Shown here: positions 17,851-42,712 of the stretch, piece by piece | Layout: each line of letters begins with the position of its first letter | Numbering within the stretch: position 1 is the first letter of the stretch | Assembly: GCF_002019735.1 (NCBI RefSeq) | Contig: NZ_KV917378.1 | Location: 1,049,869 to 1,113,868 of the forward strand | DNA from: Salipaludibacillus agaradhaerens | GTDB lineage: Bacteria > Bacillota > Bacilli > Bacillales > Salisediminibacteriaceae | Length of the DNA stretch: 64,000 nucleotides | Direction: 5' to 3' | Notes under the pieces: generated by a model | Databases searched by the model: none | Told to the model about the DNA's origin: nothing | Seen by the model: the letters and a program-made list of their open reading frames with translations, nothing else | Made by a program: the position numbers and the translations under genes

Positions 17851-17954
17851 AGTATTTGAGTCAATCAGGACATTAGCGAACGATAGTAACCACCACACAC
17901 AAATACTCCTCTCTATTTGAGCAGGGAGCTTTAAGGACGGTTATCTGTGATAAA
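17851..17954 (+). repeat. Dispersed structured repeat, copy A (5'-truncated)
   Basis: Shares TTGAGTCAATCAGGAC, a CTCC...GGGAG pairing, and TTTAAGGACGGTTATC-TGT-GATAAA with the copies at 32.5, 35.6 and 42.6 kb. The first hairpin of the unit is not recognisable here. It lies between divergent lplJ and a GerA-family gene, and its last bases abut a sigma-G-like -35. Confidence 0.75.
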
Positions 17955-17985
17955 TGAATAATTTTCATTTAATACAGGCACACTG
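17955..17985 (+). promoter_or_regulatory. Candidate sigma-G promoter for the GerA-family gene
   Basis: TGAATA (17955-17960), an 18-base spacer and CACACTG (17979-17985). The -35 is a perfect, and the -10 a 5/7, match to the B. subtilis forespore consensus TGAATA / CATACTA. Germination receptor genes belong to the sigma-G regulon, which supports the call. Confidence 0.45.
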
Positions 17986-18045
17986 AGTATATAAAAGTCT
18001 TTTCATATCATTTAAGTACCCCGACTTTATCCAAAGGAGAAAACC

Positions 18046-19503
18046 ATGAAACTCTTTAGCTGGTTTCATAAAAATGAGGAAGTAAAAAGCAACAATTTTA
18101 GAATGACAACGGACACACAGCCCTCATTTATCGTCACAACGTCCGCTAAAAAGAACAGCCTTTATGTAAAGGAAGCACTTAACGAGACAAATGAGTTGAG
18201 CATTAAGCACTACCATATCGTTTCTTATGAAAGTTGTGAAGTGATATATTTGGATTCTTTAGTATCTCAGAAGGACCAATTTGATTTAAATACTTACCTT
18301 GCCCAAATAACATCCCGCCTGACGATGCTTCAGTTATTTAACCAACTCGGTGCCAAAAGATTTTATGAAGCATCCGACATTATACAAGAAATACTTGCAG
18401 GGAATACGATCATTTTCGTCGATAGTCTCCCTTTATGTTTTTGTATCAAAACATCACACTTTAAACAAGATAACCACCATCAAAGTCCAGTAGAGCATTT
18501 CGTAAGAGAAAAGAAAGAAAATATTTTTCAGCTAAGAAAGCACGTTTCACAGGCACAATTAGTGATCCAGCACATGAATAGCGACAAAAATGGTAGTCTC
18601 ACCTTGGTATATAGAAAGGGTGCTGCTGATACTCAAGTTCTTCAAGAAGTGAAGAGACGTCTTAGTACATTGACTAGTACGAAAGCACTCACTACTGGAA
18701 TGGTAGAGGAGCATTTAGAAGACTTTCCTTTCTCTCCCTTTCCTCAATTTATGAAAACCGATCGGCTTAACCCATGTATTTCTCATTTATTAAAAGGGCG
18801 AGTCGTTCTTTTAATCGAGGGAGATTCACAAGCGCTTATTTTACCGATGACATTTTTGGCTTTTTATGAAACTCATAAAACGGCCATCAACCATTGTAAT
18901 AAAAAGAAAATGCTACTCCCGCCATTACGACTTATTAGCTTCATTACTTCTGTGACATTACCAAGCTTTTATATTGCACTAGTCAGTTTCCATTTTAATC
19001 TTTTTCCTTATATACTCTCTTCTATCGTAAAAGAAGCTCTTTTCTTCGTCACATACAGTCCATTTCTTGAAACGTTTATAGTTGAGCTTTTAATAGACGC
19101 CATTCAAGAAATAGGTGTTCTATTTCCAACTCCTATAGGTAAAATCATCGTCCTTGCTGGAGGATTAGTTATCGGTGACCTCGTGATTAGTACTGATTTA
19201 ATTTCACGTATCATGTTATTTGTCGTAGCATTGACAGCTTGTGCTTCTTTTATTGTACCTAATAAAGAAATGACTATGGCTATAAGACTTCTACGTTTTC
19301 CAATGATGATTATGGCGACCTTATTCGGATTTGCTGGTATCATCATATGCTTAAGCATTTATTGGCTTCATCTTAGTCAGCTAACTAGTATGGGCAAACC
19401 TTATTTTTCATTTAATACATCTGTGAAACTGATACATTTCTTCAAGAAATCTACGCGTAGCCTTTATGCCAGCCGAGAGGATGTTAAGAAGGTGAAAAAA
19501 TAA
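18046..19503 (+). CDS. Spore germination receptor subunit A (GerA/GerKA family), divergent and orphan
   Basis: A 485-residue protein. The N-terminal ~235 residues form the soluble GerA head. The C-terminal part carries the membrane domain: LLKGRVVLLIEGDSQALILP (about 245-264), LPSFYIALVSFH (about 305), FPTPIGKIIVLAGGLVIGD (about 361), and AIRLLRFPMMIMATLFGFAG (about 406-425), with about five hydrophobic segments. A-subunits normally form a nutrient receptor in the spore inner membrane with B and C partners; none lie nearby, so this copy would have to pair with partners encoded elsewhere. The loop after LLKGR is less conserved than in typical GerAA proteins. Confidence 0.85.
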   Translation: MKLFSWFHKNEEVKSNNFRMTTDTQPSFIVTTSAKKNSLYVKEALNETNELSIKHYHIVSYESCEVIYLDSLVSQKDQFDLNTYLAQITSRLTMLQLFNQLGAKRFYEASDIIQEILAGNTIIFVDSLPLCFCIKTSHFKQDNHHQSPVEHFVREKKENIFQLRKHVSQAQLVIQHMNSDKNGSLTLVYRKGAADTQVLQEVKRRLSTLTSTKALTTGMVEEHLEDFPFSPFPQFMKTDRLNPCISHLLKGRVVLLIEGDSQALILPMTFLAFYETHKTAINHCNKKKMLLPPLRLISFITSVTLPSFYIALVSFHFNLFPYILSSIVKEALFFVTYSPFLETFIVELLIDAIQEIGVLFPTPIGKIIVLAGGLVIGDLVISTDLISRIMLFVVALTACASFIVPNKEMTMAIRLLRFPMMIMATLFGFAGIIICLSIYWLHLSQLTSMGKPYFSFNTSVKLIHFFKKSTRSLYASREDVKKVKK

Positions 19504-19562
19504 TGATTAAACATCCACTTAATTTTATACCTTTATGTAAATTTGTCTAAAGTTACTTTTAT

Positions 19563-19606
19563 TAAAAAACGCCTCCATGTGACAACTTTAGTCGATGAAG
19601 GCGTTT
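19563..19606 (-). terminator. Terminator of sigK, possibly bidirectional
   Basis: AAACGCCT and AGGCGTTT arms flank an inner CAT/ATG pairing. The T run is on the reverse strand, serving sigK; it also faces the convergent GerA-type gene. Confidence 0.75.
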
Positions 19607-19625
19607 AACGTCGCTCTCTTATAAA

Positions 19626-20348
19626 TTATTCCTTTCCTTTTCGAAGACCTTTTTTATGATCACGATAGAACTCATGGAACAACTTCATAAGTGCTCTTTT
19701 TTCAATACGAGATACATAACTTCTTGAAATCCCCAATTCTTTTGAAATTTCTCGCTGAGTTTTTTCCTTCTTCATATCTAAACCAAAACGACCAACAATC
19801 ACTTCTTTTTCCCGACTATCAAGGACGTGAATGTATTTATATATTTGCTTTTTTTCCATATTCAACTGAATTTGATCCACAAGATCCTCGGTTTCTGCTT
19901 GAAGAACATCAATGAGGCTAATTTCATTTCCTTCTTTATCTTGACCTATCGGATCATGCAACGACACATCTTTTCTTACTTTCTTTAATGCCCGTAAATG
20001 CATTAAAATTTCATTTTCAATACAGCGGGCCGCATACGTTGCAAGCTTTGTCCCTTTACCAGATGAATAGCTTTCAATCGCCTTAATAAGTCCAATTGTA
20101 CCGATGGAAATAAGATCTTCTGTGTCTTCACGGGTATTCTCAAATTTCTTCACGATATGAGCCACTAAGCGCAGGTTATGTTCAATGAGTAAATTGCGGG
20201 CGTGTTCGTCTCCTTCCTTCATTAATTCAATGTATTTTTTTTCATCCTGCTGGCTTAATGGCTGTGGAAAGGCATTGTTCTTTACAAATGACACAAAGAC
20301 TAGCAGCTCTTTCACCACGTGAGTGATAGCTGCCAAAATGGTGGACAT
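19626..20348 (-). CDS. sigK: Late mother-cell sporulation sigma factor, pro-sigma-K
   Basis: A 240-residue sigma-70 family protein, nearly identical in layout to B. subtilis sigma-K. It has a hydrophobic pro-sequence of about 20 residues (removed by SpoIVFB), NNAFPQPLS, region 2 with [16 protein letters not shown] and [37 protein letters not shown], and region 4 with [10 protein letters not shown] and [21 protein letters not shown]. It directs coat and mother-cell lysis genes. The reading frame is uninterrupted: no skin-type prophage splits it. An upstream CATATAAA resembles a sigma-E -10, but no good -35 is seen. Confidence 0.96.
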
Positions 20349-20663
20349 GTGTAAACACTCCCTCCTTTAACTCGTTTTCTATTTATATGCCCACCATCAT
20401 GTTAGAGTGTCTGTCTTACACCAATTTAGCAAAGTTCAGTTGCATACCCCGAATAATGACATGTCAGTTAGTTCAGCTCCCACCTACTTTAGCCCCTCAC
20501 ATATCACGGAAAACATTGTTTTTTCAATTGCGTAATTAAAATTACATACTTATGACATTTGATCATATTTGTTTAAAGAACTTAATTCATGGTGTTAAAG
20601 ACTTTATCCTTACTAATTTATGCTATACTTTTGGGTGTAATATAATCTATAAGGAGTGGTTAG
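20349..20663. other. Intergenic region between sigK and the aldo/keto reductase gene
   Basis: 315 bases separating divergent genes. It should hold the sigK promoter (weak sigma-E-like CATATAAA on the reverse strand near 20380) and the promoter of the reductase gene (an extended -10-like TGCTATACT at 20631-20639). No coding sequence is supported. Confidence 0.4.
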
Positions 20664-21488
20664 ATGAGGAATGTAACGTTAAATAATGGATTGTCTATGC
20701 CGCAATTAGGCTTCGGTGTTTGGCAAGTTAATAATGATGAAGCAGCATCTGTCGTTTTGAAAGCGATTGAAACTGGCTACCGCTCCATTGACACAGCCAT
20801 GATTTACAAGAACGAAATAGGTGTCGGGCAAGGCATTAAGGATAGTCTTATTCCCCGAGAAGACCTGTTTATTACGACCAAAGTATGGAACGCTGATCAA
20901 GGTTATGAAACGACTTTAAAAGCATTTGATGCTAGTCTTGAACGATTAAATCTTGACTACATCGACCTTTATCTTATTCATTGGCCAACACCACAATTTG
21001 ATCAGTACGTCGATACTTACAAAGCTCTTGAAAAGCTTTATCATGAAGGGCGGGCTAAAGCGATAGGTGTTTGTAATTTTGATAGTGAGCATTTACAACG
21101 GCTTCTGGATGAATGTGACCTCCCTCCAGCTGTTAACCAAGTGGAATGTCACCCATTTCTAGCCCAAAATGAATTAAAAACATTTTGCAAGAAGCATAAT
21201 ATTTACATCGAATCCTGGAGCCCACTTATGCAAGGAGGAGAAGTTCTAAATCATCCCGTCGTTCAAGGTATCGCTCGAGATCATCAAAAGACAGGCGCAC
21301 AAGTTATTATACGGTGGCATCTACAAAATGACTCTATCGTCATTCCTAAATCAGTCACGCCATCTCGTATAGAAGAGAATTTTAATGTGTTCGATTTTGA
21401 GTTAACAGATGATGAAATTGAATTAATAAATAATTTAGACCGTGGTGTACGGAAAGGACCAAAGCCTTCGGAAATGAATAGGAGATAA
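20664..21488 (+). CDS. Aldo/keto reductase (YvgN/YtbE-like glyoxal reductase family)
   Basis: A 274-residue NADPH-dependent reductase. The catalytic tetrad is visible: Asp in SIDTA, Tyr in MIYKNE (about residue 48), Lys in TTKVWN (about 73) and His in LIHWP (about 106). The cofactor signature IPKSVTPSRIEENF is at about residues 231-244. It resembles B. subtilis YvgN and YtbE, which reduce glyoxal, methylglyoxal and other aldehydes; the actual substrate cannot be told from sequence. The ATG follows AAGGAGTGG. Confidence 0.9.
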   Translation: MRNVTLNNGLSMPQLGFGVWQVNNDEAASVVLKAIETGYRSIDTAMIYKNEIGVGQGIKDSLIPREDLFITTKVWNADQGYETTLKAFDASLERLNLDYIDLYLIHWPTPQFDQYVDTYKALEKLYHEGRAKAIGVCNFDSEHLQRLLDECDLPPAVNQVECHPFLAQNELKTFCKKHNIYIESWSPLMQGGEVLNHPVVQGIARDHQKTGAQVIIRWHLQNDSIVIPKSVTPSRIEENFNVFDFELTDDEIELINNLDRGVRKGPKPSEMNRR

Positions 21489-21500
21489 GGACATTAATAT

Positions 21501-21540
21501 GGAAGGCGCTCCAAATGAGCTATTTCTGGGCGCTTTCCTC
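21501..21540 (+). terminator. Probable terminator after the aldo/keto reductase gene
   Basis: GGAAGGCGC pairs with GCGCTTTCC (one G-U), with an extra CCA/TGG. The following tract (CTCTTAG) is T-poor, so termination may be weak. Confidence 0.5.
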
Positions 21541-21655
21541 TTAGCCTTCATCTTTCTTAAAGAGAATACACTCTCCCCTAAATGAACAAGCTAGTTCTTT
21601 TCCCTCCAACTATTCCCCGTTTTCCAAATAATTCAGACTAATTCCATTTTTTATA

Positions 21656-21684
21656 TTGACGCCTCTTCTAATGTTCGTTATAAT
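21656..21684 (+). promoter_or_regulatory. Sigma-A promoter of the sulfate-assimilation operon
   Basis: TTGACG (21656-21661), a 17-base spacer and TATAAT (21679-21684), about 160 bases before cysP. AATTCC occurs on either side (21640-21645 and 21732-21737); whether a regulator such as CymR binds there is unknown. I looked for an S-box (SAM riboswitch) in the leader and see none. Confidence 0.7.
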
Positions 21685-21842
21685 CCAACTAACTTTAATA
21701 ACACACTTGCAAATCTTCTTTTTAAATCATTAATTCCGATTAAACTACTTTGTATTATAAGAATAATTGAATTAGCCTATTTTTGAGGAATATTGTCGAT
21801 TAAAGCTTTGACTAAATCCGTAAAGGGCCAGGAGTGACTAAG

Positions 21843-22910
21843 ATGATCTTAACTTATTTAGCATTTATTCTTGCCATGTTTTTCGCTATGAATATTGGAG
21901 CAAGCGGGGCTGCTGCAACGATGGGGCCGGCCTATGGCAGTCAGGCGATTAAACGTAAGCAAGTAGCTCTTGTAATCGCAGGTATCGGTGCTTTTCTCGG
22001 AGCAACTCTTGGCGGCGGGCAGGTAGTCAAAACTGTAGGTGAAGGCATCATCCCTACTCATATATTTAGCGTAGAAGTGGCCATTGTAATCCTTTTATCA
22101 GCTACACTCACCCTTTTTTTAGCCAATGTGATCGGAATCCCTCTTTCAACAAGTGAAGTGACAATCGGAGCTGTTGTAGGAGTAGGAATGGCTTTTCAAG
22201 TATTATTCGTAAATAACGTTCTATATATCATCTCTTTTTGGGTCATCGTTCCAGTCGTTGCCTTTATAGCATGTTTTATTTTCGGAAAACTCATTCAATT
22301 TAGCGACCATCGGTTTCCTCAACTCAAAGGTGAAGGAAAGTGGAAAAAATGGTTGTCTCTCCTCCTGATTATAACGGGCTTCACAGAAGCGTTTGCAGCT
22401 GGGATGAATAATGTGGCCAATGCCATCGGGCCCCTTGTTGGGGCACAACTTATCGATGGCACATCAGGGATTATCATGGGGGCTTTCTTCGTTTTTCTAG
22501 GTGCCTGCTTTCTCGGAGGAAAAGTGCTTGAAACAAACGGTAAAAAAATCACTTCTTTTAGTCTTCTTCAAGGAACAGCTGTCTCAGGAACTGGTGGTGG
22601 ACTCGTCATCATTGCATCTATTTTCGGAATCCCTGTTCCATTAACTCAAGCGACTACTGCTGGCATCGTAGGTGTAGGCTGTGCCGAAAATGGTTTTCAA
22701 TTATGGCAGAAGGATGTGATAAAGAAGATTATTAAAGTTTGGCTCGTTTCGCCTGTGTTGTCCCTCGTCATGTCTTACACATTAATTCATTTATTTTTAC
22801 TGCCTAATCCCTATATCGTCGCAGTGATGATATTCATGATCATTTCAACGATTGGAACAATCAGTTTATACCGATCTGTGAAGATTGAAAAAGAAACACT
22901 CGATCATTAA
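21843..22910 (+). CDS. cysP: Sulfate permease CysP (PiT family)
   Basis: A 355-residue membrane protein of the inorganic phosphate transporter family that imports sulfate in Bacillus. It has the two internal repeats with signature motifs: NIGASGAAATMGPAYGS (about residues 16-32) with GIPLSTSEVTIGAVVG (about 99-114), and GMNNVANAIGPLVG (about 183) with GTAVSGTGGG and IPVPLTQATTAGIVG. About ten hydrophobic segments are present. The start is ATG 21843 after CCAGGAG; a GTG nine bases upstream overlaps the ribosome site. It leads the cys operon, matching the B. subtilis content but with cysP before cysH. Confidence 0.93.
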   Translation: MILTYLAFILAMFFAMNIGASGAAATMGPAYGSQAIKRKQVALVIAGIGAFLGATLGGGQVVKTVGEGIIPTHIFSVEVAIVILLSATLTLFLANVIGIPLSTSEVTIGAVVGVGMAFQVLFVNNVLYIISFWVIVPVVAFIACFIFGKLIQFSDHRFPQLKGEGKWKKWLSLLLIITGFTEAFAAGMNNVANAIGPLVGAQLIDGTSGIIMGAFFVFLGACFLGGKVLETNGKKITSFSLLQGTAVSGTGGGLVIIASIFGIPVPLTQATTAGIVGVGCAENGFQLWQKDVIKKIIKVWLVSPVLSLVMSYTLIHLFLLPNPYIVAVMIFMIISTIGTISLYRSVKIEKETLDH

Positions 22911-22932
22911 TCTCACGTCAGGAGGTCAAACA

Positions 22933-23673
22933 ATGAATGAGAAAGAAAGGTATTCCTACCACACACTATCACAGCAAGATTATCGTAGCTTTAATGAACA
23001 CTTAGCTGAAGGAAAGGCCCTTGATATTATTCGTTGGGCATATGACACTTTTTCTCACCAGCTCGTGTATGCCTGTAGCTTCGGCGCCGAAGGAATCGTT
23101 CTTATTGATTTAATCTCGCGCGCCAAACAGGATGCAACAATTATTTTCCTCGATACTCACGTCCATTTTAAAGAAACGTATGAATTAATTGAAGACATGC
23201 AGGCTCGTTATCCATCTATCCAACTAAAGATGATCGAGCCTGAGCTCACGTTGGCAGACCAGGCAGCCAAGCATGGAGAAAAGCTTTGGGAAACGAATCC
23301 GGACTTGTGTTGCTATATAAGAAAAAACAAACCGTTGAAGCAAGCGCTTGAAGGGTACACTGCATGGCTTTCCGGTTTAAGAAGAGCTCAATCACCAACG
23401 AGAGCAAAAACTGAGTTTGTTAATAAAGATGATAAATTTCAAATGATTAAAATATGTCCCCTGATCCATTGGAGTTGGGACGATGTTTGGCAGTATATTA
23501 AAGATCACAATTTACCTTATAACCCGCTCCACGATCAAGACTATCCGAGTATCGGCTGTGAACCATGTACAAAGCCCGTGAAAGAAGGTGATGATTTACG
23601 AGCTGGCAGATGGACAGGATTGCAAAAAACCGAATGTGGTTTACACATTAATACACCTATTTCTAAGGAGTGA
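22933..23673 (+). CDS. cysH: (Phospho)adenylylsulfate reductase
   Basis: CysH reduces APS/PAPS to sulfite with thioredoxin. The 246-residue protein has the PP-loop-like start YACSFGAEG (about residues 39-47), SGLRRAQSPTRA (about 149), and the paired cysteines CC (about 120) and CxxC in GCEPCTKPV (about 205) that ligate a [4Fe-4S] cluster in APS-using enzymes. A C-terminal catalytic Cys lies in ECGLH. The start is ATG 22933 after AGGAGG. The cysteine set argues for APS (or dual) specificity. Confidence 0.94.
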   Translation: MNEKERYSYHTLSQQDYRSFNEHLAEGKALDIIRWAYDTFSHQLVYACSFGAEGIVLIDLISRAKQDATIIFLDTHVHFKETYELIEDMQARYPSIQLKMIEPELTLADQAAKHGEKLWETNPDLCCYIRKNKPLKQALEGYTAWLSGLRRAQSPTRAKTEFVNKDDKFQMIKICPLIHWSWDDVWQYIKDHNLPYNPLHDQDYPSIGCEPCTKPVKEGDDLRAGRWTGLQKTECGLHINTPISKE

Positions 23674-23679
23674 CTTAAG

Positions 23680-24819
23680 ATGACGGTAAGCATCCCTCAT
23701 GGAGGAACATTAATTAATTTAGTAGATGAAACCATCACATCACAAGACATCACACAGGAAGTAGCACTAGATTTAACGAGTTTATCAGATTTAGAATTAA
23801 TAGCGAATGGGGCATATAGTCCATTAACAGGTTTTCTCGGCCAGACTGACTACGAGCACGTTGTCAATAACATGCGTTTAGCTGATGGAACCGTCTGGAG
23901 CTTACCTATTACTCTTCCGGTTTCAGAAAAAGTTGCCTCAGAACTCACACTAAATCAATTAGTAAAATTAAATTACGACGGGGTCACCTATGGCATTCTT
24001 TCGCTTAAAGAAATATTTACCCCAGACCAAACGAGAGAAGCCTTGTCTGTTTATAAAACAAGTGATATCGCTCATCCGGGAGTTAAACGTTTATACGAAC
24101 GAGGAAATACGTATTTAGCTGGGGATGTGACCTTAATCAGAAAGCCGAAAAAATTACAATTTTCTTCATACTATTTAGCGCCATCTGAAACACGTCAACT
24201 GTTCAAAGAAAAGAATTGGAAAACAGTTGTGGGTTTTCAAACAAGAAATCCAGTTCACCGTGCCCATGAATATATTCAAAAGTCGGCGTTAGAAATCGTT
24301 GACGGTCTCTTTTTAAATCCATTAGTGGGCGAAACCAAAGCTGATGACATCCCTGCTGATGTCAGGATGAAAAGTTATCATGTGTTATTAGACCATTACT
24401 ATCCGAAGGAACGTGTTTCATTAGCTGTTTTTCCCGCTGCAATGCGTTATGCTGGGCCTCGAGAAGCTATTTTTCATGCGTTAGTAAGGAAAAACTTCGG
24501 TTGTACGCACTTTATCGTTGGAAGAGACCATGCAGGAGTAGGCGATTACTATGGAACATATGAGGCACAAGATATTTTCAAACAATTTACTGAAGAAGAA
24601 TTAGGAATCACTCCCCTCTTTTTTGAGCATAGCTTTTACTGCAATAAATGTGAGAATATGGCCTCAACTAAAACATGTCCTCACGACAAGGATGACAGAG
24701 TGATTCTTTCAGGGACAAAGGTGAGAGAGCTCCTACGAAATGGTGACACACCCCCACCAGAATTCAGCCGCCCTGAAGTGGTCAAAGTATTAATTGAAGG
24801 GATGAACGTAAACGTATGA
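23680..24819 (+). CDS. sat: Sulfate adenylyltransferase
   Basis: A 379-residue homo-oligomeric ATP sulfurylase that makes APS from sulfate and ATP. Motifs: [14 protein letters not shown] (about residues 185-198, containing the QTRNP and HxxH ATP-binding elements), [10 protein letters not shown] (about 257), GRDHAGVG (about 283), and a zinc-type CNKC...CPH (about 321-334). It lies 6 bases after cysH and overlaps cysC by 4 bases. Confidence 0.95.
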
Positions 24820-25424
24820 CACAATCTGTACCCAACAATGTCCATTGGCATGATACAACGATAACTAAGGAACAACGTCAACGCCTAACAGGCCATAAAA
24901 GTTTTACACTTTGGTTCACCGGCTTATCAGGTTCCGGGAAATCAACACTGGCTAACAGGCTTGATCAACGCCTCTATGAATCTAATATTAAAAGCTATGT
25001 TCTTGACGGAGACAACATTCGACACGGATTAAACAAAGATCTTGGCTTTAGCCCCGATGATCGACAGGAGAATATTCGTCGTATTGGAGAAGTGGCTAAT
25101 CTGTTTGTAGACAGTGGTACCGTCGTTCTAACCGCCTTCGTCTCTCCTTATCAATCGGACAGACAATTGGCTAGAGAGTTATTATCGCACGATGAATTCA
25201 TTGAAATTTACGTTAAATGTGCTTTAGAGGAATGTGAGAAACGCGACCCGAAGGGCCTATATGAAAAAGCTAGAGAAGGCAAAATTCCTGAATTCACAGG
25301 AATAAGTGCACCTTATGAAGCACCTGAAAACCCTGAGCTAATCGTTTCAACAGATGAATTATCTATCCCGGAAGCGGTGGATAAAATCTTCAATTATTTA
25401 AAAAATCGCAATCTGATTTCATAG
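24816..25424 (+). CDS. cysC: Adenylylsulfate kinase
   Basis: A 202-residue APS kinase that phosphorylates APS to PAPS. It has the P-loop [11 protein letters not shown] (about residues 31-41), [20 protein letters not shown] (about 64-83), and FVSPY (about 108). It overlaps sat by four bases (ATGA junction), so translation is coupled. Because the CysH here looks APS-capable, CysC may mainly serve PAPS homeostasis. Confidence 0.94.
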
Positions 25425-25472
25425 AAGTGTCAATAGCTATTCTCTCTAAAACATTGGAAAGGAGATATCATA

Positions 25473-27089: not shown

Positions 27090-27141
27090 AGCCTAAGATG
27101 CATTTTTCCATACTAAAAAGCTAAAGGAGGCGTGACTACTT

Positions 27142-27345: not shown

Positions 27346-27369
27346 GAATAGCGGAGAGGGGTAGCACGT

Positions 27370-28164: not shown

Positions 28165-28195
28165 ACAACTCATTAACCTCCGCATTCGAAATACG

Positions 28196-31671: not shown

Positions 31672-31734
31672 AAAGGACCTAGTTAAAATATGTTATCATG
31701 TAAATAACGAAATGAGGTTAATGAGGATGATGTT

Positions 31735-32292: not shown

Positions 32293-32397
32293 TTAAAAAA
32301 TACGTAAGAGAAACATGTTACTTCTGGCACCAAATCTATTATAAAGCTAAGCTTCAATTAGTGGGGTTTTACTGCCTCTTAAGAGGGGGATAAATAT

Positions 32398-32436
32398 AAA
32401 ACGAGACAGGAGTTTAGACTCTCTGTCTCGTTTTTC
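32398..32436. terminator. Terminator after the ImmA-type gene
   Basis: AAACGAGACAG pairs with CTGTCTCGTTT around a loop that itself contains GAGT/ACTC pairing; TTTTT follows. Confidence 0.88.
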
Positions 32437-32471
32437 ATCATAATTGGCTTATAGCATGTATAGAAAATAAT

Positions 32472-32614
32472 AAAACGAACCTTCAATTTCGTACTCTCTC
32501 ACTGATTGATAGTTTTGAGTGTGCATCAGAACATTAGCGTCCGTTAGCTCCTACCTAAATAGATGTGGCCTTTTTTGAACGGGCGTTTTACAGACGGTTA
32601 TCTTCTGTTGATAT
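32472..32614 (+). repeat. Dispersed structured repeat, copy B
   Basis: Contains AAACGAACCTTCAAT, CACTGATTGATAG, ATTAGCGTCCGTTAGCT, CCTAAATAGAT, and TTTTACAGACGGTTATC with a GATA partner, in the same order and spacing as copies C and D. It lies between convergent genes, which argues against a purely promoter or leader role. Confidence 0.8.
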
Positions 32615-32627
32615 ACATCTATTAGGT

Positions 32628-33554: not shown

Positions 33555-33665
33555 TCTAACCTCTCCTCACTGATGGAAAATTTAGTATCGACCATACTAT
33601 ATGTACAAAAGCACAAAAAATGAATATGTCGAACTAAGTTTCTACTATATCATTTTTTTAGTTAC

Positions 33666-33701
33666 AGCTATAAAAGTTGCGCAAAGGAAACTTTTGTAGC
33701 T
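33666..33701. other. Stable hairpin upstream of the metal-binding lipoprotein gene
   Basis: AGCTATAAAAGTT and AACTTTTGTAGCT form a 13-bp stem (one G-U) around a 10-base loop, about 110-150 bases before the start codon. No T tract follows on either strand, so it is not an ordinary terminator. It may be an operator or a 5' leader structure. Confidence 0.5.
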
Positions 33702-33763
33702 ATTGATTATTATACATAGGCAAGGACCCGATGTAAACCATTAATTTCATTATCATTTAAACG

Positions 33764-33794
33764 ATAAACAGCACCTCTAGCGAAGAGGTGCTGT
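33764..33794 (-). terminator. Terminator of the PRC-barrel gene
   Basis: ACAGCACCTCT and AGAGGTGCTGT form a perfect 11-bp stem with a 5-base loop. A TTTAT tract follows on the reverse strand. Confidence 0.82.
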
Positions 33795-33801
33795 GAAAGG
33801 T

Positions 33802-34536: not shown

Positions 34537-34599
34537 GTTTACCACCCTTTCACGGAATTTGAGTTTAGTCACTCTATTCCCTTCCTCAGAATGATAAAA

Positions 34600-35412: not shown

Positions 35413-35444
35413 AGGTCATCGCTCTTTTCCTTTGTTTACATTAT

Positions 35445-35452
35445 ATATCGGC
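35445..35452 (-). promoter_or_regulatory. Sigma-D-like -10 element upstream of the flagellin paralogue
   Basis: GCCGATAT on the reverse strand is a perfect sigma-D -10, 33 bases before the start. The expected TAAA at 15 bases upstream is missing, so activity is uncertain. Confidence 0.35.
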
Positions 35453-35540
35453 AATTAATGAATCATTCAGGACTGTTTTTTTTGACTTTTTTCTTTTTTA
35501 TTCCTAGTTGAACCAATTTCACCATACATAACACACCTAT

Positions 35541-35698
35541 ATAACGTTTCTTCAATCAATGGGCGTTTTCGCCCTTCTCCCACTGATTGTTAGTTGAGTC
35601 AATCAGGACATGAGCGGCCGTTAGCTCTCATCTAAATAGATTTAGCTCCCTCTCTATTTTGGGAGGCGGGAGCTTTACGGACGGATATTTGTGATAAA
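35541..35698 (+). repeat. Dispersed structured repeat, copy C (most complete)
   Basis: Order of elements: a hairpin CAATCAATGGG...CCCACTGATTG; the box TTGAGTCAATCAGGAC; AGCGGCCGTTAGCT, whose CCGTTAGCT can pair with AGCTTTACGG about 50 bases later; CTAAATAGATTTAG; GCTCCC paired with GGGAGC; and a 3' TTTGTGATAAA end. It ends about 70 bases before the S9 peptidase start, in a divergent intergenic region. Confidence 0.85.
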
Positions 35699-35768
35699 AT
35701 TATTTCGGAAATCGAATTTTTTTGATACGATAATATTTATAATTACATCATTATGAGAGGAGTCATTC

Positions 35769-37751
35769 ATGGTTAAAAAAAGACGTATCACTCCCTTTGA
35801 TTTGCGAAATATGAATGTGTTAAGTGAACCTCAATTTTCCCCTCAAGGTGACAAAGTTGCGTTTATTCGGCAATATATCACCGAAGATGATGAGTATCTC
35901 TCTCACTTATTTATGCAGGATACTTCTCAAGAAGTGGCTAAACAATGGACGTTTGGCAATGGCACTGTGTTAAATCCACGTTTTTCTCCGGACGGCAACT
36001 GGCTCGTATATGTCGCTATACATGAAAAAAATCAACAGCCTCAACTCTATTTAATGGCTGTGGACGGCGGCGAAGGGAAATGTATTACAAACCTTGTAGG
36101 CGGAGCCACGCAACCTGTATGGTCACCTGATTCTTCAAAAATTTTATTTGCTACAAAATTTGAAAAAGGCCGTGCAACAGTTAAGGGAGAGGCTCCTTTA
36201 CGTGATGAAAAGCCTCAGCCTCTCGTTGTGGACAATATTAAATATAAGTCGGATGCGGACGGTTTTTTCGATAATAAGTATAAACAGCTAGCTCTTTATA
36301 ATATGGTAGATGAAACGGTTCATTTCTTAACAGATGACAATGTTCATCACGAACCCGGACACTGGTCTCCAGACAGCCAATTGATCACGTATACCTCTAA
36401 TAAACACGGAGAAGAGTATCTATTATCAGATGTTTATGTGCTAGATATTTCCAAGTTAGAGCGCCGCTGTCTTACTAATGGAGTCGGATTGTTTAAGCAC
36501 GGCAACTTCTCTCCTGACGGTCAGTATGTCGCTTGTATCGGACACGAAAAAGACTATGCAGGAGCTACTCAATCAAAACTATGGCTTATTGAACTTGCAT
36601 CATTACATCGCATATGTCTCACCGCTGATTGGGATGTACATATTGGTGATGTAGCTATCGGTGATCTCAGCTCTGGACATCCTTCCCTTGGCCCTCTATG
36701 GTCAGAAGATAATACATGTCTTTACGTGCTATCAAGTACAGCAGGAAATACGAATTTATTTCAAGTTTCCTTAAATAAGGAAATTAAGAAGATAACGACT
36801 GGCGAACACCACATGTATGCCTTTCATATCCATGAAAGAACAAATCAAGCTGTAGCTGCCATCAGTTCACCTACCAACCCCGGTGAATTATTTCTTATAA
36901 ATTTAACTGCTTGTGACATGGCCGCTTTTACAACGATGAATAAACCATTATTAGATTCAGTTTATTTACAAGAACCTGAAGAAATAGTATGTAAAAGTCG
37001 TGATGGTTTGGCTGTTCAAGGATGGCTATTAAAGCCATATAACTATAAAGAAGGCGAAAGTTATCCAGGGATTCTTCAGATCCACGGTGGCCCTCATGCT
37101 ATGTATGCTAATACTTTTTTTCATGAATTTCAGCTTCTAGCGGCCGAAGGTTATACCGTTTTCTATTGTAACCCCCGTGGAAGTCACGGTTATGGGCAAG
37201 CTTTCGTCAATGCTTGCCGCGGGGATTATGGGGGTATGGATTATGAAGATATAATGGCTTTTACTGATACTATTCTTGCAAAATATCCTTGGATAGATAA
37301 AGAGCGTCTTGGCGTGACAGGTGGTAGCTACGGCGGCTTTATGACAAATTGGATAACGAGCCATACTCACCGTTTTAAAGCTGCCGCTACTCTTCGGTGT
37401 ATTTCTAATTGGATCAGTTTCTACGGGGTTAGTGACATAGGCTATTTCTTTACAGAGTGGGAAATTGGCGCTGACTTTCTCGATGATCCTGATAAACTGT
37501 GGAAGCATTCCCCACTAAAATATGTTAATGATATTGAAACACCCTTATTAATTATGCATGGAGAACACGATTATCGCTGTCCGATAGATCAAGCGGAACA
37601 ACTATTCATATCATTAAAGCAACGTGGGAAGGAGACGAGGTTTGTAAGATTTCCTGAGGCCAATCATGAATTATCTCGGAGTGGCCCTCCTCATTTACGA
37701 TTTGCACGACTAGAAGAGCTTATAAATTGGTTCAACACACACTTAAACTAA
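35769..37751 (+). CDS. S9 family peptidase (acylaminoacyl-peptidase/prolyl-oligopeptidase type)
   Basis: A 660-residue protein. An N-terminal beta-propeller (about 1-390) has repeated DPD-type motifs such as FSPDGNWLVYVA, WSPDSSKILFAT and FSPDGQYVACIG. The C-terminal alpha/beta-hydrolase domain has the nucleophile in GGSYGGFM (about Ser 521), Asp in HGEHDYRCP (about 602) and His in EANHELSR (about 634). Such enzymes trim N-acylated or small peptides in the cytoplasm; no signal peptide is present. The ATG follows AGAGGAG. It is monocistronic, with a terminator after it. Confidence 0.93.
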   Translation: MVKKRRITPFDLRNMNVLSEPQFSPQGDKVAFIRQYITEDDEYLSHLFMQDTSQEVAKQWTFGNGTVLNPRFSPDGNWLVYVAIHEKNQQPQLYLMAVDGGEGKCITNLVGGATQPVWSPDSSKILFATKFEKGRATVKGEAPLRDEKPQPLVVDNIKYKSDADGFFDNKYKQLALYNMVDETVHFLTDDNVHHEPGHWSPDSQLITYTSNKHGEEYLLSDVYVLDISKLERRCLTNGVGLFKHGNFSPDGQYVACIGHEKDYAGATQSKLWLIELASLHRICLTADWDVHIGDVAIGDLSSGHPSLGPLWSEDNTCLYVLSSTAGNTNLFQVSLNKEIKKITTGEHHMYAFHIHERTNQAVAAISSPTNPGELFLINLTACDMAAFTTMNKPLLDSVYLQEPEEIVCKSRDGLAVQGWLLKPYNYKEGESYPGILQIHGGPHAMYANTFFHEFQLLAAEGYTVFYCNPRGSHGYGQAFVNACRGDYGGMDYEDIMAFTDTILAKYPWIDKERLGVTGGSYGGFMTNWITSHTHRFKAAATLRCISNWISFYGVSDIGYFFTEWEIGADFLDDPDKLWKHSPLKYVNDIETPLLIMHGEHDYRCPIDQAEQLFISLKQRGKETRFVRFPEANHELSRSGPPHLRFARLEELINWFNTHLN

Positions 37752-37784
37752 ATCGACTAGAAAGACGGTGACTCAAGCTAACTT

Positions 37785-37822
37785 AAGAGCTAGGCTCACT
37801 TTTAAGTGAGCTTCTAGCTCTT
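37785..37822. terminator. Bidirectional hairpin between the S9 peptidase gene and thiF
   Basis: AAGAGCTAG/CTAGCTCTT outer arms and CTCACTT/AAGTGAG inner arms form a 16-bp interrupted stem, with an additional CTAAC/GTTAG pair outside. The T tract is weak, but the convergent position supports termination. Confidence 0.75.
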
Positions 37823-37849
37823 TAATGTTAGTTGTCCAATGGCTACCGT

Positions 37850-38869
37850 TTAATCTAGCAATTGATAATAAAGAATTTTAGCTTCTAATAAGGAAGAAGT
37901 ACCATGTATGAACACCCGTCCATCTTTAAACAGAACTAAACGAAATTTACCTAATGAACAAAAAAGTAAATGTCTATTCTTTGAAACATGGCCTCCCCAC
38001 ATCACTAATATACGTTCACTGTCATCAAAATTGCGTTCAACCGTGACTGGCGGACGAATTTGAACCGTATTTCTTCCACACAATACTGCTACCTTCGTTT
38101 GGAAATGATAGTTTAAATAAGGATAAATACGTTTCTTACCGCAAGAAGTACACGACTCTTTCTTTAATTTATTGACCTGTAAATAAGAATGCTCATTTTT
38201 CCACAAATCAAAAGAAGCGAGAGTGGATCTAAAAGTCGTCTGATCACCAATCAAGAGTTTAAGTGCTTCTGTTGTTTGATAAGCTGTTACCATATGCACG
38301 ACTGGATTGACAATTCCTTGTGTATCACAAGTAGCTCCTCCTATTTCAAGAGAATCTAGTAGACAATTTAAACAGGGTGTAACACCAGGAATAATGGTGA
38401 AGCTTAATCCATAGCTTCCAACACATGCGCCAAAGATCCAAGGAATATTGTACTTAATCGCTGTATCATTAATAATAAAACGGGTTTGAAAATTGTCGCA
38501 GCTATCAATGATTAAATCTACTCCTCTGATCAATTCCGCTAATTCCTCTACGCCAACATCTGAAACAAAGGCATTTATGGTCACTTCAGAATTAATTGCT
38601 TCTAATCTTTGTTTTGCTGCAATAGCCTTAGGTAATCTATTAGCCACATCTTTCTCATCATAAAGGGATTGTCGTTGAAGATTACTCATCTCTACGTAAT
38701 CACGATCAACAATTGTTAATTCTCCTACCCCGCTTCTCACGAGATTTTCAGCATTAACACTCCCTAATGCTCCAAGACCAATACATAAAACATGCTTATT
38801 TTTTAATCTCTCTTGACCTTGTTCACCAATTGGTTCAAAAAACATCTGTCTTGAATAACGACTTGACAT
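37850..38869 (-). CDS. thiF: ThiF, sulfur-carrier adenylyltransferase
   Basis: A 339-residue E1-like enzyme that adenylates the C-terminus of ThiS for sulfur transfer in thiazole synthesis. It has the nucleotide loop CIGLGALGSVNAENLVRSGVG (in parts, about residues 30-50), DRDYVEMSNLQRQ (about 55-67) and DSCDNFQTRF (about 121). Zinc-binding CxxC pairs lie at CLNCL (about 169) and CTSCGKK (about 242). The C-terminal ~90 residues extend beyond the core domain. It is the last gene of the thiG-thiH-tenI-thiS-thiF operon. Confidence 0.93.
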   Translation of the reverse strand: MSSRYSRQMFFEPIGEQGQERLKNKHVLCIGLGALGSVNAENLVRSGVGELTIVDRDYVEMSNLQRQSLYDEKDVANRLPKAIAAKQRLEAINSEVTINAFVSDVGVEELAELIRGVDLIIDSCDNFQTRFIINDTAIKYNIPWIFGACVGSYGLSFTIIPGVTPCLNCLLDSLEIGGATCDTQGIVNPVVHMVTAYQTTEALKLLIGDQTTFRSTLASFDLWKNEHSYLQVNKLKKESCTSCGKKRIYPYLNYHFQTKVAVLCGRNTVQIRPPVTVERNFDDSERILVMWGGHVSKNRHLLFCSLGKFRLVLFKDGRVFIHGTSSLLEAKILYYQLLD

Positions 38870-38884
38870 GGTTCCCCTCTCCTT

Positions 38885-39085
38885 TTAGCCGCCCCCAACG
38901 AATTGCACAATCTCTATTACATCTTGCTCAGAAATAACTGTTGTCTCTCGTTCATTTGTAGTTAATATTGAGCGATTCAGTTCAATGACAACTTGTTTAT
39001 TACTTAATTTGAGATAATCAAGTAATTCTTCTGCCGTCATGCCTCGTGGCAGTTCTTCTTCTTTTCCATTAATGTGTACTAGCAT
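38885..39085 (-). CDS. thiS: ThiS sulfur carrier
   Basis: A 66-residue ubiquitin-fold protein ending in FVGGG, whose terminal Gly-Gly is thiocarboxylated by ThiF. The start is ATG 39085, seven bases after AGGAGGAGG; the longer frame to 39163 would lie within tenI. The start overlaps the end of tenI by 17 bases. Confidence 0.92.
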   Translation of the reverse strand: MLVHINGKEEELPRGMTAEELLDYLKLSNKQVVIELNRSILTTNERETTVISEQDVIEIVQFVGGG

Positions 39086-39698
39086 GTGGCATCCTCCTCC
39101 TAAAATCTTTGACAGCTGAAAGCAGGTCAGCACTCTCCCATATCCCGGACATGACCGCAACACCTTTTGCCCCCATGTAAAAAACCTTCTTTACATTATC
39201 TGGTCTAATCCCTCCAATAGCAATAACAGGAATAGCCACTTCTTTAGTTATCTCTTGTAAAGAGGTCAGACCACGAGGTAAAAGAGCTCTTTTTGATGGA
39301 GAGTCAAAAATGTGGCCAAACATGATGCTGTCTGCACCGTTTTCTTCCTCTTTCATCGCTTCTCTTAATGAGTGAACAGACTTCCCTACATGTAAAGTGG
39401 GAAATGTTCGCTTAACATCCGCCGTATCAATACTTTGGTAATTAAGCTGAACCCTCTTTACTTGCTTTGTCAGAGCGACATCAACACGATCATTTACAAT
39501 AATCTTGTCTAACTGGATGCCCGCTTGCAGCATATGATCTATGCAGTGAGACAGATCCTTCGCTGAAGTTGCTTTTTCTCTTAAATGAAAGTAATCAACA
39601 TACGAATCAATTAAAGTAGCTTTTTCCACAAATTTTGTTAACGGCATTTTCCCATTTGAAATGACATGGATCTCGTTATTTATTAATGTCTTTTTCAT
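39069..39698 (-). CDS. tenI: Thiazole tautomerase TenI
   Basis: A 209-residue TIM-barrel protein related to ThiE. It carries HLREK (about residues 38-42), IIVNDRVDVAL (about 64), VGKSVHSLREA (about 102), FGHIFDSPSKR (about 126) and PVIAIGGIRPDNV (about 151), with the catalytic His region typical of TenI rather than of thiamine-phosphate synthase. TenI aromatises the ThiG product. It overlaps thiH through an ATGA junction. Confidence 0.87.
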   Translation of the reverse strand: MKKTLINNEIHVISNGKMPLTKFVEKATLIDSYVDYFHLREKATSAKDLSHCIDHMLQAGIQLDKIIVNDRVDVALTKQVKRVQLNYQSIDTADVKRTFPTLHVGKSVHSLREAMKEEENGADSIMFGHIFDSPSKRALLPRGLTSLQEITKEVAIPVIAIGGIRPDNVKKVFYMGAKGVAVMSGIWESADLLSAVKDFRRRMPHASTH

Positions 39699-40798
39699 AT
39701 AAGCTGCCAGTCTTTCATTACAGGTGAATAATTGGCTTGCTGTAAATGTTCTTTGACTTCTTTCACAGATCGCTCATCAGAGATGTCAAATTGACTTTGT
39801 GTAACATCAGGTTCAGAATATCCGCCTACTACTGTCGAGGACTCTGCTGACATTTTTGTAACCCCAAGTGGAATCAAATTATTTCGCAATGTTGCTCGCT
39901 CTCTTGTAGAAAGGGTAATGCCAGCCCTCGGTAAAAATAATCTTGCTGCCACAATAGCTTGAACTAAATGTTTGTCGGTAATCATCACTTTCGGTTTATA
40001 GCTTCCTGCATGAGGGCGAAGCCTAGGAAATGAGACACTTACTTCTGTTTCAGGAAAGGTTTGTTGAAGGTATGCTGCATGGAGCCCTGTTATAAAGCAC
40101 TCTTTTCGCCACTCATCAAGCCCAAGTAAAGCACCAATATTGACTGTCCTCATACCAGCAGCTGCTGCCCGTTCAGGTGTTTGCAAACGATAACGGAAAT
40201 CTCTTTTTGGTCCAGCAGTATGAATCTCACTGTAAACCTTCTCATCATAAACTTCTTGATAAACGGTAACACCATCTATCCCTGCTTTCACTAATTTCTG
40301 ATAATCTAACGTGTCCATCGGTTGAATTTCAATTGAGATAGACGCAAAATAGTCTTTTAAAATTGACATGCTTTCTATTAAATACGCCACTGAAGAATGA
40401 TTTCTAGACTCTCCAGATAATAAAATAATGTGTTGAATTCCTCTATCGGAAATGATCTCTGCTTCTTTTCTTACTTCATCCATCGTCAGACGTCTTCGAG
40501 GAAAAGAATTATCTACACTAAAACTACAATATTTACAAATATTCACACAGTAGTCAGACAAATATAATGGTTGAAAAAGCAACATCGTTTTACCAAAATG
40601 CTGAACAGTTAACTGATGTGCTTTCTGAGCCATAACTTCTAAGTACGCTTCTGCCGCAGGAGACAGAAGTTTTAAAAAATCATGTTCATCTATTCTTGAT
40701 TTAGTTAAAATCGTCTCAATCTCACTGGGAGATATTGATGCGAGATGATCAGCGATAGGCAACCCTTTTAAGTGTTGTAGTTTGTCATAAAAACTCAC
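39695..40798 (-). CDS. thiH: 2-Iminoacetate synthase ThiH (radical SAM)
   Basis: A 367-residue radical-SAM enzyme that splits tyrosine to give dehydroglycine for thiazole synthesis. The cluster motif is CVNICKYC (Cx3Cx2C, about residues 85-92), followed by LLSGES (about 127) and the C-terminal thiamine-type radical-SAM domain. The GTG start follows AGGAG at seven bases. Most bacilli use the oxygen-dependent ThiO instead, so ThiH suggests thiazole synthesis that can run without oxygen. Confidence 0.93.
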   Translation of the reverse strand: MSFYDKLQHLKGLPIADHLASISPSEIETILTKSRIDEHDFLKLLSPAAEAYLEVMAQKAHQLTVQHFGKTMLLFQPLYLSDYCVNICKYCSFSVDNSFPRRRLTMDEVRKEAEIISDRGIQHIILLSGESRNHSSVAYLIESMSILKDYFASISIEIQPMDTLDYQKLVKAGIDGVTVYQEVYDEKVYSEIHTAGPKRDFRYRLQTPERAAAAGMRTVNIGALLGLDEWRKECFITGLHAAYLQQTFPETEVSVSFPRLRPHAGSYKPKVMITDKHLVQAIVAARLFLPRAGITLSTRERATLRNNLIPLGVTKMSAESSTVVGGYSEPDVTQSQFDISDERSVKEVKEHLQQANYSPVMKDWQLI

Positions 40799-41046
40799 AA
40801 TATGTCTCCTCTCTCCTGTTTTTTAAGAGCCATTTTCACAATACATACCACTAAATGTTTTTCGCCATTAGCTCTTCAGACAGTCAGCTGATCCTTCGGG
40901 GCATCATCTTTTACTGGATGCCTTTTTAGAGTGTGTGCAGAGACGATATAGCACGTTAGGCTTGTTCACGTTAAGATTTCAATTCTGCCGTTCATATAGC
41001 TTAATCTCATATTTGCCTCTTCATTTTTACAGGGAGCGATAATTTT
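40799..41046. other. Unusually long gap between thiG and thiH
   Basis: 248 bases inside an otherwise tight operon. No gene is visible. A GGCATC...GATGCC hairpin (about 40901-40922) is followed by TTTTT on the plus strand, i.e. opposite to the operon. An antisense or small plus-strand transcript ending there is possible but has no other support. Confidence 0.4.
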
Positions 41047-41820
41047 TTAATCTAAAAACCCTGTTAATGGTGACGAAGCTTGAGCTTTTAAAGAGGTAGA
41101 GCCAAAACCTGATAAATAGCTTATCCTCCCTGCTTTAACTGCTAAATCAAATGCTCGCGCCATCTGAACTGGATCACCTGCTGTAGCAATTGCCGTATTA
41201 ACAAGAACAGCATCAGCTCCCATTTCCATCGCCTCTGCAGCTTCTGATGGCTTTCCAATACCTGCATCCACAATAATTGGTACTGACAATTCATCAATCA
41301 TCATTTGGATCATCTCTTTCATACGGAGTCCTCTATTGGACCCTATTGGTGATCCTAAGGGCATAACAACTTCGGCTCCCGCTTCTATCATTCTCTTACC
41401 TGCCATCAAATCAGGACTCATATAGGGTAGGACCACAAATCCCTCCTTTACTAAAGTATCTGTCGCCTTTAACGTCTCCTGGTTATCAGGTAATAAATAT
41501 TTCTGATCTGAAATGACCTCAATCTTCACCCAATTTCCTAAGCCAGAAGCTCTCGCAAGCCTTGCGATTCTTATTGCTTCTTCCGCAGTTCGAGCACCTG
41601 ACGTATTAGGCATCAGTATGATATTATCTGGTATTAATCTAACGATATCCTCTTCCTCGTTTTCAAAATTCACCCGTCTCATTGCTACAGTTACAACTTG
41701 AGTAGCTGCATGCTTAATCGCTTCCTCCATAACACGATGATCCCCATACTTGCCCGTGCCTAGAAACAAACGATTCTTAAGTTTTTTTCCACCAATAATT
41801 AGCGTGTCTTCATTCGTCAT
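41047..41820 (-). CDS. thiG: Thiazole synthase ThiG
   Basis: A 257-residue TIM-barrel enzyme that builds the thiazole phosphate from DXP, dehydroglycine and ThiS thiocarboxylate. Motifs: FLGTGKYG (about residues 19-26), VTVAMRRVN (about 43), [13 protein letters not shown]-like [12 protein letters not shown] (about 71), [14 protein letters not shown] (about 98, with the Schiff-base Lys), [11 protein letters not shown] (about 155) and [21 protein letters not shown] (in parts, about 180-200). It is the first gene of the operon, directly under TPP riboswitch control. Confidence 0.95.
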
Positions 41821-41851
41821 CGTTATATCACCATCCTTAATTTACTGCATT

Positions 41852-41882
41852 AAAAAAAGCGCCCTTGCAAAAAGGTGCGCTT
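41852..41882 (-). terminator. Riboswitch-controlled terminator upstream of thiG
   Basis: On the reverse strand, AAGCGCACCTT pairs with AAGGGCGCTT, followed by TTTTTTT, about 30 bases before thiG. This is the expression platform of the TPP riboswitch. Confidence 0.85.
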
Positions 41883-41909
41883 AAATAAACATTAAACTCT
41901 TAAACTAAC

Positions 41910-42006
41910 GTCTATTAAGCTTCCCTCCGCTGGTATTACCCATTTCAGGTTCAAAGAGTTGGAAAAATTCCTCTCAGCCGTCCTGTAGAACGGCACCCCT
42001 AGCTAG
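41910..42006 (-). ncRNA. TPP riboswitch (THI element)
   Basis: Reading the reverse strand: AGGGGTGCC, a variable helix, GGCTGAGAGG, then TTTGAACCTGAA, and GGGTAATACCAGCGGAGGGA, all in the consensus order of the TPP aptamer. Binding of thiamine pyrophosphate should favour the terminator at 41852-41882 and lower expression of the whole thi operon. The sequence between aptamer and terminator can act as anti-terminator (GTTAGTTTAAGAG). Confidence 0.96.
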
Positions 42007-42044
42007 TAAATCTATTCATTTAAGTATGGAAAAAAAAATAAGTT

Positions 42045-42287
42045 CTACTGTTCAAAAAGATCTTCTTCAGTGATTCTTTTTAGAAATTGACTACTTTCTG
42101 ACTCGTCCATCTCTAAATCAATTTCTTGTCCCGGCTGGAGAGACAATGCCAAAACACCTAAAAGACTTTTTGCATCAATCACCCAGTGATCTTTTTTTAT
42201 AATAACCTTTCCGGAGACTTGACTGGCTTGGTTGACAAAAAAGCTTGCAGACTCAGCAAAAATAGGCTTTTTAACTGTTAACTTCAT
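42045..42287 (-). CDS. HPr-like protein lacking the active-site histidine
   Basis: An 80-residue protein with the HPr fold pattern. The region that is GIHARPA in HPr reads PIFAESA here, so both the phosphorylated His15 and the Arg17 are gone. The regulatory-serine region is kept as AKSLLGVLALSLQPGQEI (compare LKSIMGVMSLGIAKGAEI in HPr), with the Ser46 equivalent at about residue 41. Like Crh it cannot carry phosphate for sugar uptake, but it might be phosphorylated on serine. The gene follows a CGGAGGTG ribosome site. Confidence 0.75.
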   Translation of the reverse strand: MKLTVKKPIFAESASFFVNQASQVSGKVIIKKDHWVIDAKSLLGVLALSLQPGQEIDLEMDESESSQFLKRITEEDLFEQ

Positions 42288-42555
42288 CCTTACACCTCCG
42301 TTCTGTTCTGCTCACATTATATCCAAAATTTGCCCAGATGCCAAGTGGAATTTTCCAATTGTATCTAATATTTAACCCTTTCTCAGCTAAAGTTTGATAT
42401 GATGACATTAATAAGTCCATATGTATGAGGAATTTTTCTGTTATAACTTTTATTCCCACCCAGTGACTGACAAATATAAACATCGCTCCTTCATTCATGA
42501 GATTTCTTACACTTTCCTTGATAAGCGATAATAACGCAGTTTTCCTCTCCTATCA

Positions 42556-42712
42556 TAAAACGAACCTTTAATCAGTGGGTGTATTGGTTCTTTCCCCACC
42601 AATTTGTAGTTGAGTCAATCAGGACTCTAGCGGCCGTTAGCTACCGCTAAATATATTTATCTCCCCTCTCATTTTTGAAGCGGGGGTTTTACGGACGATT
42701 ATCTCTGATAAA
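42556..42712 (+). repeat. Dispersed structured repeat, copy D
   Basis: Elements: AAACGAACCTTTAATCAGTGGG, a CCCCACC partner, TTGAGTCAATCAGGAC, TAGCGGCCGTTAGCT, CTAAATATATTTA, CTCCCC paired with GGGGG, TTTTACGGACG, and TTATC-TCT-GATAA. It ends 25 bases before the NUDIX gene start. The other part of the 42288-42737 gap shows no supported gene. Confidence 0.85.

What the first reader, a model, noticed from the sequence alone, without database searches (positions are those of the whole stretch)
17851..42712. A structured intergenic repeat family: four copies in 25 kb, same orientation
Four intergenic segments (17851-17954, 32472-32614, 35541-35698, 42556-42712) share ordered boxes: TTGAGTCAATCAGGAC, AGCGGCCGTTAGCT, CTAAATAGATTTAG, TTTACGGACGGTTATC and a terminal GATAA. 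Arms of internal hairpins differ between copies while keeping pairing (GCTCCC/GGGAGC in C, CTCCCC/GGGGG in D; TTATC-TGT-GATAA in A, TTATC-TCT-GATAA in D), which suggests selection on structure. CCGTTAGCT can also pair long-range with AGCTTTACGG. Two full copies end 25-70 bases before a gene start, and one lies between convergent genes. I do not recognise it as a named family, and I see no terminal inverted repeats or target duplication. It could be a small RNA, a protein-binding element or a non-autonomous mobile repeat.
Basis: seen in the sequence. Interest (0 to 1): 0.78.

Follow-up and report, generated by a model that had tools for sequence, protein, structure and literature searches.

The report
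Widespread hairpin mobile repeat in Bacillales
The four repeats are copies of a roughly 157-base mobile DNA element without a gene, folded into two hairpins and present in at least 150 places in this chromosome; it lands on the short site ATAAA, is oriented as if it inserts into the lagging strand at replication forks, and looks like a repeat that was thought to belong only to the Bacillus cereus group.

Summary
The four segments are end-to-end copies (146-171 bp) of one element; a 54-bp shortened one lies nearby. The own 4.32-Mb chromosome holds at least 150 (scoring cap). Relatives, many matched over one end only, occur in 101 of 397 sampled genomes of the order and in 12 from other classes. 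Two stems show compensatory change: 127 double-change cells against 36.7 +/- 4.2 in shuffles. Both ends carry ATAAA; three clean empty sites in a sister species hold one ATAAA. Copies read against the replication fork (132 of 150; 18 of 19 where flanking genes disagree). Best reading: a non-autonomous single-strand transposon working like an IS200/IS605 derivative. Against it: 18 of 101 carriers, the own genome included, show no Y1 transposase, and no parent element was found. It resembles bcr1 of the B. cereus group (TTTAT ends), reported as group-specific; sequence identity could not be tested. A small RNA is not supported: G.U and A.C cells are about equal (34 and 25).

The parts
17784..17954 (+). 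copy A, end to end, diverged; ATAAG...GATAAA ends; between divergent genes (lipoate-protein ligase 16712-17698 -, GerA-type germination protein 18046-19503 +)
   Evidence: empty in sister species G004
32341..32394 (+). 54-bp mini copy of the second subfamily (ATAAAGCTAAGCTTC...GGGGGATAAA), internal deletion
   Evidence: read; weak covariance-model match, E 0.025; same subfamily at full length in G006 and G000
32470..32615 (+). copy B, most of one arm of hairpin 1 deleted; between convergent genes (M78 peptidase, ZnuA)
   Evidence: not present in G004, where about 30 bases stand between the matching flanks
35539..35698 (+). copy C, end to end; between divergent genes (flagellin, S9 peptidase)
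   Evidence: decayed copy at the same place in G004
42555..42712 (+). copy D, end to end; between divergent genes (HPr-like, NUDIX)
42555..42559 (+). left terminal ATAAA of copy D (TTTAT on the other strand)
42708..42712 (+). right terminal ATAAA of copy D

Best explanation
It is a non-autonomous mobile DNA element. Shown: typically 155-160 bp, no gene, ATAAA at both ends, insertion at an ATAAA (TTTAT) site, head-to-tail arrays that share the ATAAA, two hairpins kept by compensatory change, and an orientation that places the strand reading TTTAT-element-TTTAT in the lagging-strand template. Inferred: a transposase supplied in trans acts on single-stranded DNA at the fork. Because the element itself ends in TTTAT, a new copy can land directly behind an old one, which would give the arrays. 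Not shown: which enzyme does this. In the own genome no Y1 transposase was found, and among 44 copies examined the nearest neighbours at other places are at most 95.6% identical, so activity there looks old.
For: Copy number and spread. Empty sites with one ATAAA: copy A, G000:1789900 and G000:1797395; the last splits a reading frame that is open in G004. Sequence information drops sharply outside ATAAA in 175 left and 171 right non-tandem flanks (the profile demanded complete ends, which inflates the ends themselves). Orientation against the fork, origin set by dnaA and terminus assumed opposite: 132 of 150 in G000 (arrays collapsed 116 of 134, p 1e-18); collapsed, among copies listed: G004 26 of 30, G026 31 of 40, G019 27 of 40 (p 0.04), G006 26 of 39 (p 0.053). 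Where one flanking ORF runs with and one against the fork, 18 of 19 copies follow the rule. Target supply does not explain it: in window intergenic DNA ATAAA is rarer on the strand used (33 against 53). Stems vary with compensation while the TTA beside them does not: T73 46, T74 53, A75 48 of 53; T180 51, T181 53, A182 49 of 53. Of three Y1 insertion sequences compared in pairs, one (G030, same family) has a left boundary at TTTAT in both copies, one (G006) at TTTAT in one copy and TTTTT in the other, one (G112) at TTGAT (the right boundary of the G030 one lies outside the fetched stretch). Layout and guide logic of IS200/IS605: passages of PMC6006769 and PMC7290912.
Against: Y1_Tnp (PF01797) gives no match in 18 of 101 carriers and is only weakly enriched: 83 of 101 carriers against 210 of 296 non-carriers, p 0.027; strong hits (E below 1e-30) 36 of 101 against 68 of 296, p 0.018. 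Two carriers without Y1, G331 and G350, each hold a copy identical to the other's in different flanks, which suggests recent activity without it. Stems are longer than the 20-25 nt hairpins described for IS608-type ends, and the right-end hairpin holds a further nested stem. No autonomous copy with these ends was found: among 533 left and 572 right end matches in the fetched loci, 11 left-right pairs 260-6000 bases apart held nested repeats, an extra module or a host gene, no transposase seen by eye. The strand bias is weak in G019 and not significant in G006. PMC7290912 found no leading/lagging preference in one real IS605 set (10 of 22), so the bias is no proof of family.
Confidence: 0.52

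Rival explanations
1. Non-autonomous element moved by a different, unrecognised enzyme (host Xer-type or other site-specific recombinase, or a new single-strand transposase) that recombines folded DNA with a 5-bp ATAAA site.
For: 18 of 101 carriers without a Y1 match; the own genome gives no match to Y1, IS110 or reverse-transcriptase families. [quoted passage not shown]
Against: No recombinase was seen by eye to recur among the 25 largest ORF clusters of 120 array stretches (no family scan was run on them). Sister species of one genus with and without the element argue against a universal host enzyme alone.
Confidence: 0.32
2. Regulatory RNA or mRNA-stability element selected for function at the RNA level.
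For: Three of four window copies lie upstream of a gene in the same direction; covarying stems. PMC3446304 reports 84 of 165 and 62 of 155 bcr copies within transcripts of two B. cereus strains (passages).
Against: Orientation follows the fork, not genes; upstream/downstream gene relative to the element: opposite/opposite 17, opposite/same 11, same/opposite 8, same/same 4, one unknown, of 41. G.U 34 against A.C 25 cells, p 0.30. Presence is patchy within a genus.
Confidence: 0.07
3. A MITE with cryptic terminal inverted repeats moved by a DDE transposase with a 5-bp target duplication.
For: Five bases doubled at empty sites.
Against: Ends are not inverted repeats (alignments); the doubled bases are ATAAA in the three clean cases; strong replication-strand bias in G000.
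Confidence: 0.05

Closest known systems
bcr1 repeat of the Bacillus cereus group (Okstad 2004: not held, abstract recalled; passages of PMC6542083, PMC8725734, PMC3446304, PMC2267715 seen)
   Same: 147-167 bp in the table of PMC2267715, 11-130 copies and mostly chromosomal (PMC6542083), structured, TTTAT motif tied to its possible mobility (at both ends: recalled).
   Different: Stated to be confined to the B. cereus group; this family is in 101 of 397 sampled genomes of the order and in other classes. Sequence identity with bcr1 was not testable; none of the plasmid hits was a B. cereus-group plasmid.
PATE: palindrome-ends-only derivatives of IS200/IS605 (PMC7290912, passages)
   Same: Short, gene-free, subterminal hairpins, short fixed target at one end, often lagging-strand template.
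   Different: No parent IS200/IS605 with these ends was found; identical TTTAT at both ends and head-to-tail arrays; longer stems; carriers without a Y1 match.
REP/BIME with TnpA-REP (PMC6006769, passages)
   Same: Hairpins with a conserved short foot sequence, many intergenic copies.
   Different: REP foot is GTAG/GTGG and units are 21-65 nt; here about 157 nt with foot TAA, directly repeated.
Bacillaceae-1 RNA (Rfam RF01690)
   Same: Structured repeat in Bacillaceae; found nested inside a long copy (L176).
   Different: Different sequence; the element itself matched no Rfam family where scanned.

Membership tests
bcr1 | Length about 155 bp, many intergenic chromosomal copies | tested here: met
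   of 41 copies none lies within an intact predicted ORF, though one of them splits a reading frame
bcr1 | TTTAT motif at both ends | tested here: met
bcr1 | Sequence similarity to the bcr1 consensus | not testable with these tools
bcr1 | Restricted to the B. cereus group | tested here: not met
   named carriers include Ornithinibacillus, Oceanobacillus, Peribacillus, Lysinibacillus, Sporosarcina; bears on bcr1 only if it is the same family
IS200/IS605-type non-autonomous element (PATE) | Subterminal hairpin near each end | tested here: met
IS200/IS605-type non-autonomous element (PATE) | Insertion beside a fixed short target | tested here: met
   which side belongs to the target cannot be told, both being ATAAA
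IS200/IS605-type non-autonomous element (PATE) | Guide sequence 5' of each hairpin foot able to pair with the cleavage site | tested here: inconclusive
   TAA conserved at both feet; its pairing with TTTAT is inferred
IS200/IS605-type non-autonomous element (PATE) | Insertion into the lagging-strand template | tested here: met
   strong in G000 and G004, present in G026, weak in G019, not significant in G006
IS200/IS605-type non-autonomous element (PATE) | Autonomous Y1 parent with the same ends | tested here: not met
   none found in the material fetched; whole genomes could not be read through
MITE of a DDE transposon | Terminal inverted repeats | tested here: not met
   alignments

The most novel reading that the evidence does not exclude
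A single mobile-repeat family, spread over about a quarter of the sampled species of the order and into other classes of the phylum, moves as folded single-stranded DNA into TTTAT of the lagging-strand template by a dedicated enzyme that is not a Y1 transposase, an IS110 recombinase or a reverse transcriptase.
Probability: 0.22. Interest if true: 0.82.

Novelty: new variant of a known kind. Interest (0 to 1): 0.62.

Why it matters
Short structured repeats such as bcr1 have been treated as a peculiarity of one species group with an unknown way of moving. If this family includes bcr1, the repeat is one of the commoner mobile elements of its order, and its target, strand bias and foot motif give a concrete, testable mechanism. 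It also forms tandem arrays, hosts other nested repeats, and can interrupt a reading frame.

Tried and rejected
Rfam: no family for the element in the window or in L063, L051, L265. Phage and plasmid carriage: no match in 50,697 phage records; 4 of 72,556 plasmid records at E 1e-3; 2 viral-contig stretches with the left-end pattern, none with the array junction. Y1 transposase as strict partner: not borne out; one copy near a G006 TnpA (L103) was not seen beside the second copy of that insertion sequence (L121). IS110: no match in carriers G000, G004, G019, G088. Reverse transcriptase: no match in carriers G000, G004, G331, G350, G077, G114, G165, G181. Recombinase beside arrays: 1,768 ORFs of 120 stretches were clustered; the 25 largest clusters were read by eye, one looking like an IS1182 transposase (recalled) in two stretches. 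Longer forms as autonomous copies: 11 pairs were nested repeats, an extra module, or an sr1P-like gene (name recalled) amplified within one array. Text search for sequence words: 41 papers, the 20 listed irrelevant. G201 as a B. cereus-group genome: judged unlikely from gene names recalled. Rows dropped: of 64 dereplicated copies 13 were left out by eye (length outliers and a few others) before alignment A2, and two window copies added; the third helix (three pairs) hardly varies and supports nothing, 41 own copies with flanks were used, duplicates and tandem neighbours left out, G019 and G026 lists leave out short palindromic matches, and G004 and G006 lists are those printed, a cut list, 13 copies were tried: 2 clean empty sites, 6 with a copy, remnant or unclear sequence at the place, 5 not placed on both sides.
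Full report
CHECK. The four segments are real and in one orientation. A profile from 31 copies, these four among them, finds exactly four places in the window. Covariance model R1, which contains C and D but not A and B, still finds A and B at E 4.3e-8 and 6.2e-9. Coordinates are 17784-17954, 32470-32615, 35539-35698 and 42555-42712. A fifth, 54-bp copy of a second subfamily lies at 32341-32394 (read; weak match). The organism was not identified.

ANATOMY. On 53 copies (51 of 64 dereplicated ones, plus C and D) 15 of 19 predicted pairs have a change on both sides; 127 double-change cells against 36.7 +/- 4.2 in shuffles, and 24 or fewer when partners are slid by 1 to 3 columns. The third helix of three pairs hardly varies and gives no such support. 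One copy folded as DNA is 6 standard deviations better than shuffles. The TTA after each stem is nearly invariant although the stem bases change.

COPY NUMBER AND SPREAD. BLAST gave 45 matches in the own chromosome; the covariance model matched 150, the number scored of 1,659 candidates, so 150 is a floor. Three of eight genomes of the own genus carry it (own included), two of nine of genus g4, 101 of 397 of the order in 54 of 135 genera, many by the left half only, and 16 of 398 of the phylum. Twelve of those 16 belong to other classes, several by weak or partial matches; two were read end to end (L295, L296).

MOBILITY. Copy A is absent from sister species G004, where one ATAAA stands in place of the element. 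Of 13 further own copies tried, two have the same clean empty site, six show a copy, remnant or unclear sequence, and five could not be placed. One of the two splits a reading frame that is open in G004. Array units share the ATAAA. Two subfamilies share the target in G006. Flanks carry little information beyond ATAAA.

STRAND. With dnaA at 2.876 Mb in the own genome and the terminus taken as opposite, 132 of 150 copies read against the fork, 116 of 134 with arrays collapsed. Collapsed counts elsewhere, over the copies listed: G004 26 of 30, G026 31 of 40, G019 27 of 40 (weak), G006 26 of 39 (not significant). In 41 own copies with flanks, 19 have flanking ORFs in conflict; 18 of those still follow the fork. 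The ATAAA target itself is commoner on the strand that is not used (33 against 53). So the strand that reads TTTAT-element-TTTAT is mostly the lagging-strand template.

MECHANISM. The sum (asymmetric ends, subterminal hairpins, a fixed short site, lagging-strand template, a conserved triplet at each hairpin foot complementary to part of TTTAT) is the layout of IS200/IS605 ends as described in PMC6006769 (passages). Of three Y1 insertion sequences compared, one starts at TTTAT in both copies, one at TTTAT and TTTTT, one at TTGAT. Against: no Y1 match in 18 of 101 carriers and no parent element found. In the own genome the 44 copies examined look old, so loss of the enzyme is possible there, but two other carriers without Y1 each hold a copy identical to the other's in different flanks. 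IS110 and reverse transcriptase are also missing from several carriers. The enzyme is open.

KNOWN RELATIVES. The closest published repeat is bcr1, about 155 bp with TTTAT at each end (recalled from Okstad 2004, not held), described as specific to the B. cereus group in PMC6542083 (passages) and PMC8725734 (passages). I could not obtain its sequence, so membership stays open. Searches for print on a Bacillales-wide family were made; none listed one, in a library that lacks most subscription journals.

Noticed in passing
L176 2547-2612 (and 2631-2734, below the cut-off): Bacillaceae-1 RNA (RF01690, 42.7 bits, gathering 35; second match 32.3) sits inside a long copy of the element; like inserts by BLAST in L182, L218, L186, L231, L139 and by eye in L245, L257, L066 and a G004 copy. 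Bacillaceae-1 may itself be a mobile repeat that lands in such hairpins.
   Followed up: partly
L169 2412-4500 (Peribacillus huizhouensis): Three units of about 630 bp with element ends enclose an sr1P-like small gene (name recalled), 97.7-98.5% alike, within one array: array amplification or cargo.
   Followed up: partly
L093 2001-2090 (Klebsiella grimontii pNY3A): A shortened copy of this repeat in a record labelled Klebsiella plasmid; possible contamination or transfer.
   Followed up: no
G006 stretches L263/L264: A second subfamily (ATAAAGCTAAGCTTC...CTGCCCCTTAAGAGTGGGATAAA) coexists with the first and stands beside it at a shared ATAAA.
   Followed up: partly
copy A site in G000, G004, G006: G000 and G006 seem to share the insertion while G004 has a clean site: precise loss or independent use of the same ATAAA.
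   Followed up: no
window 41905-42010 -: TPP riboswitch (RF00059, 69 bits).
   Followed up: no
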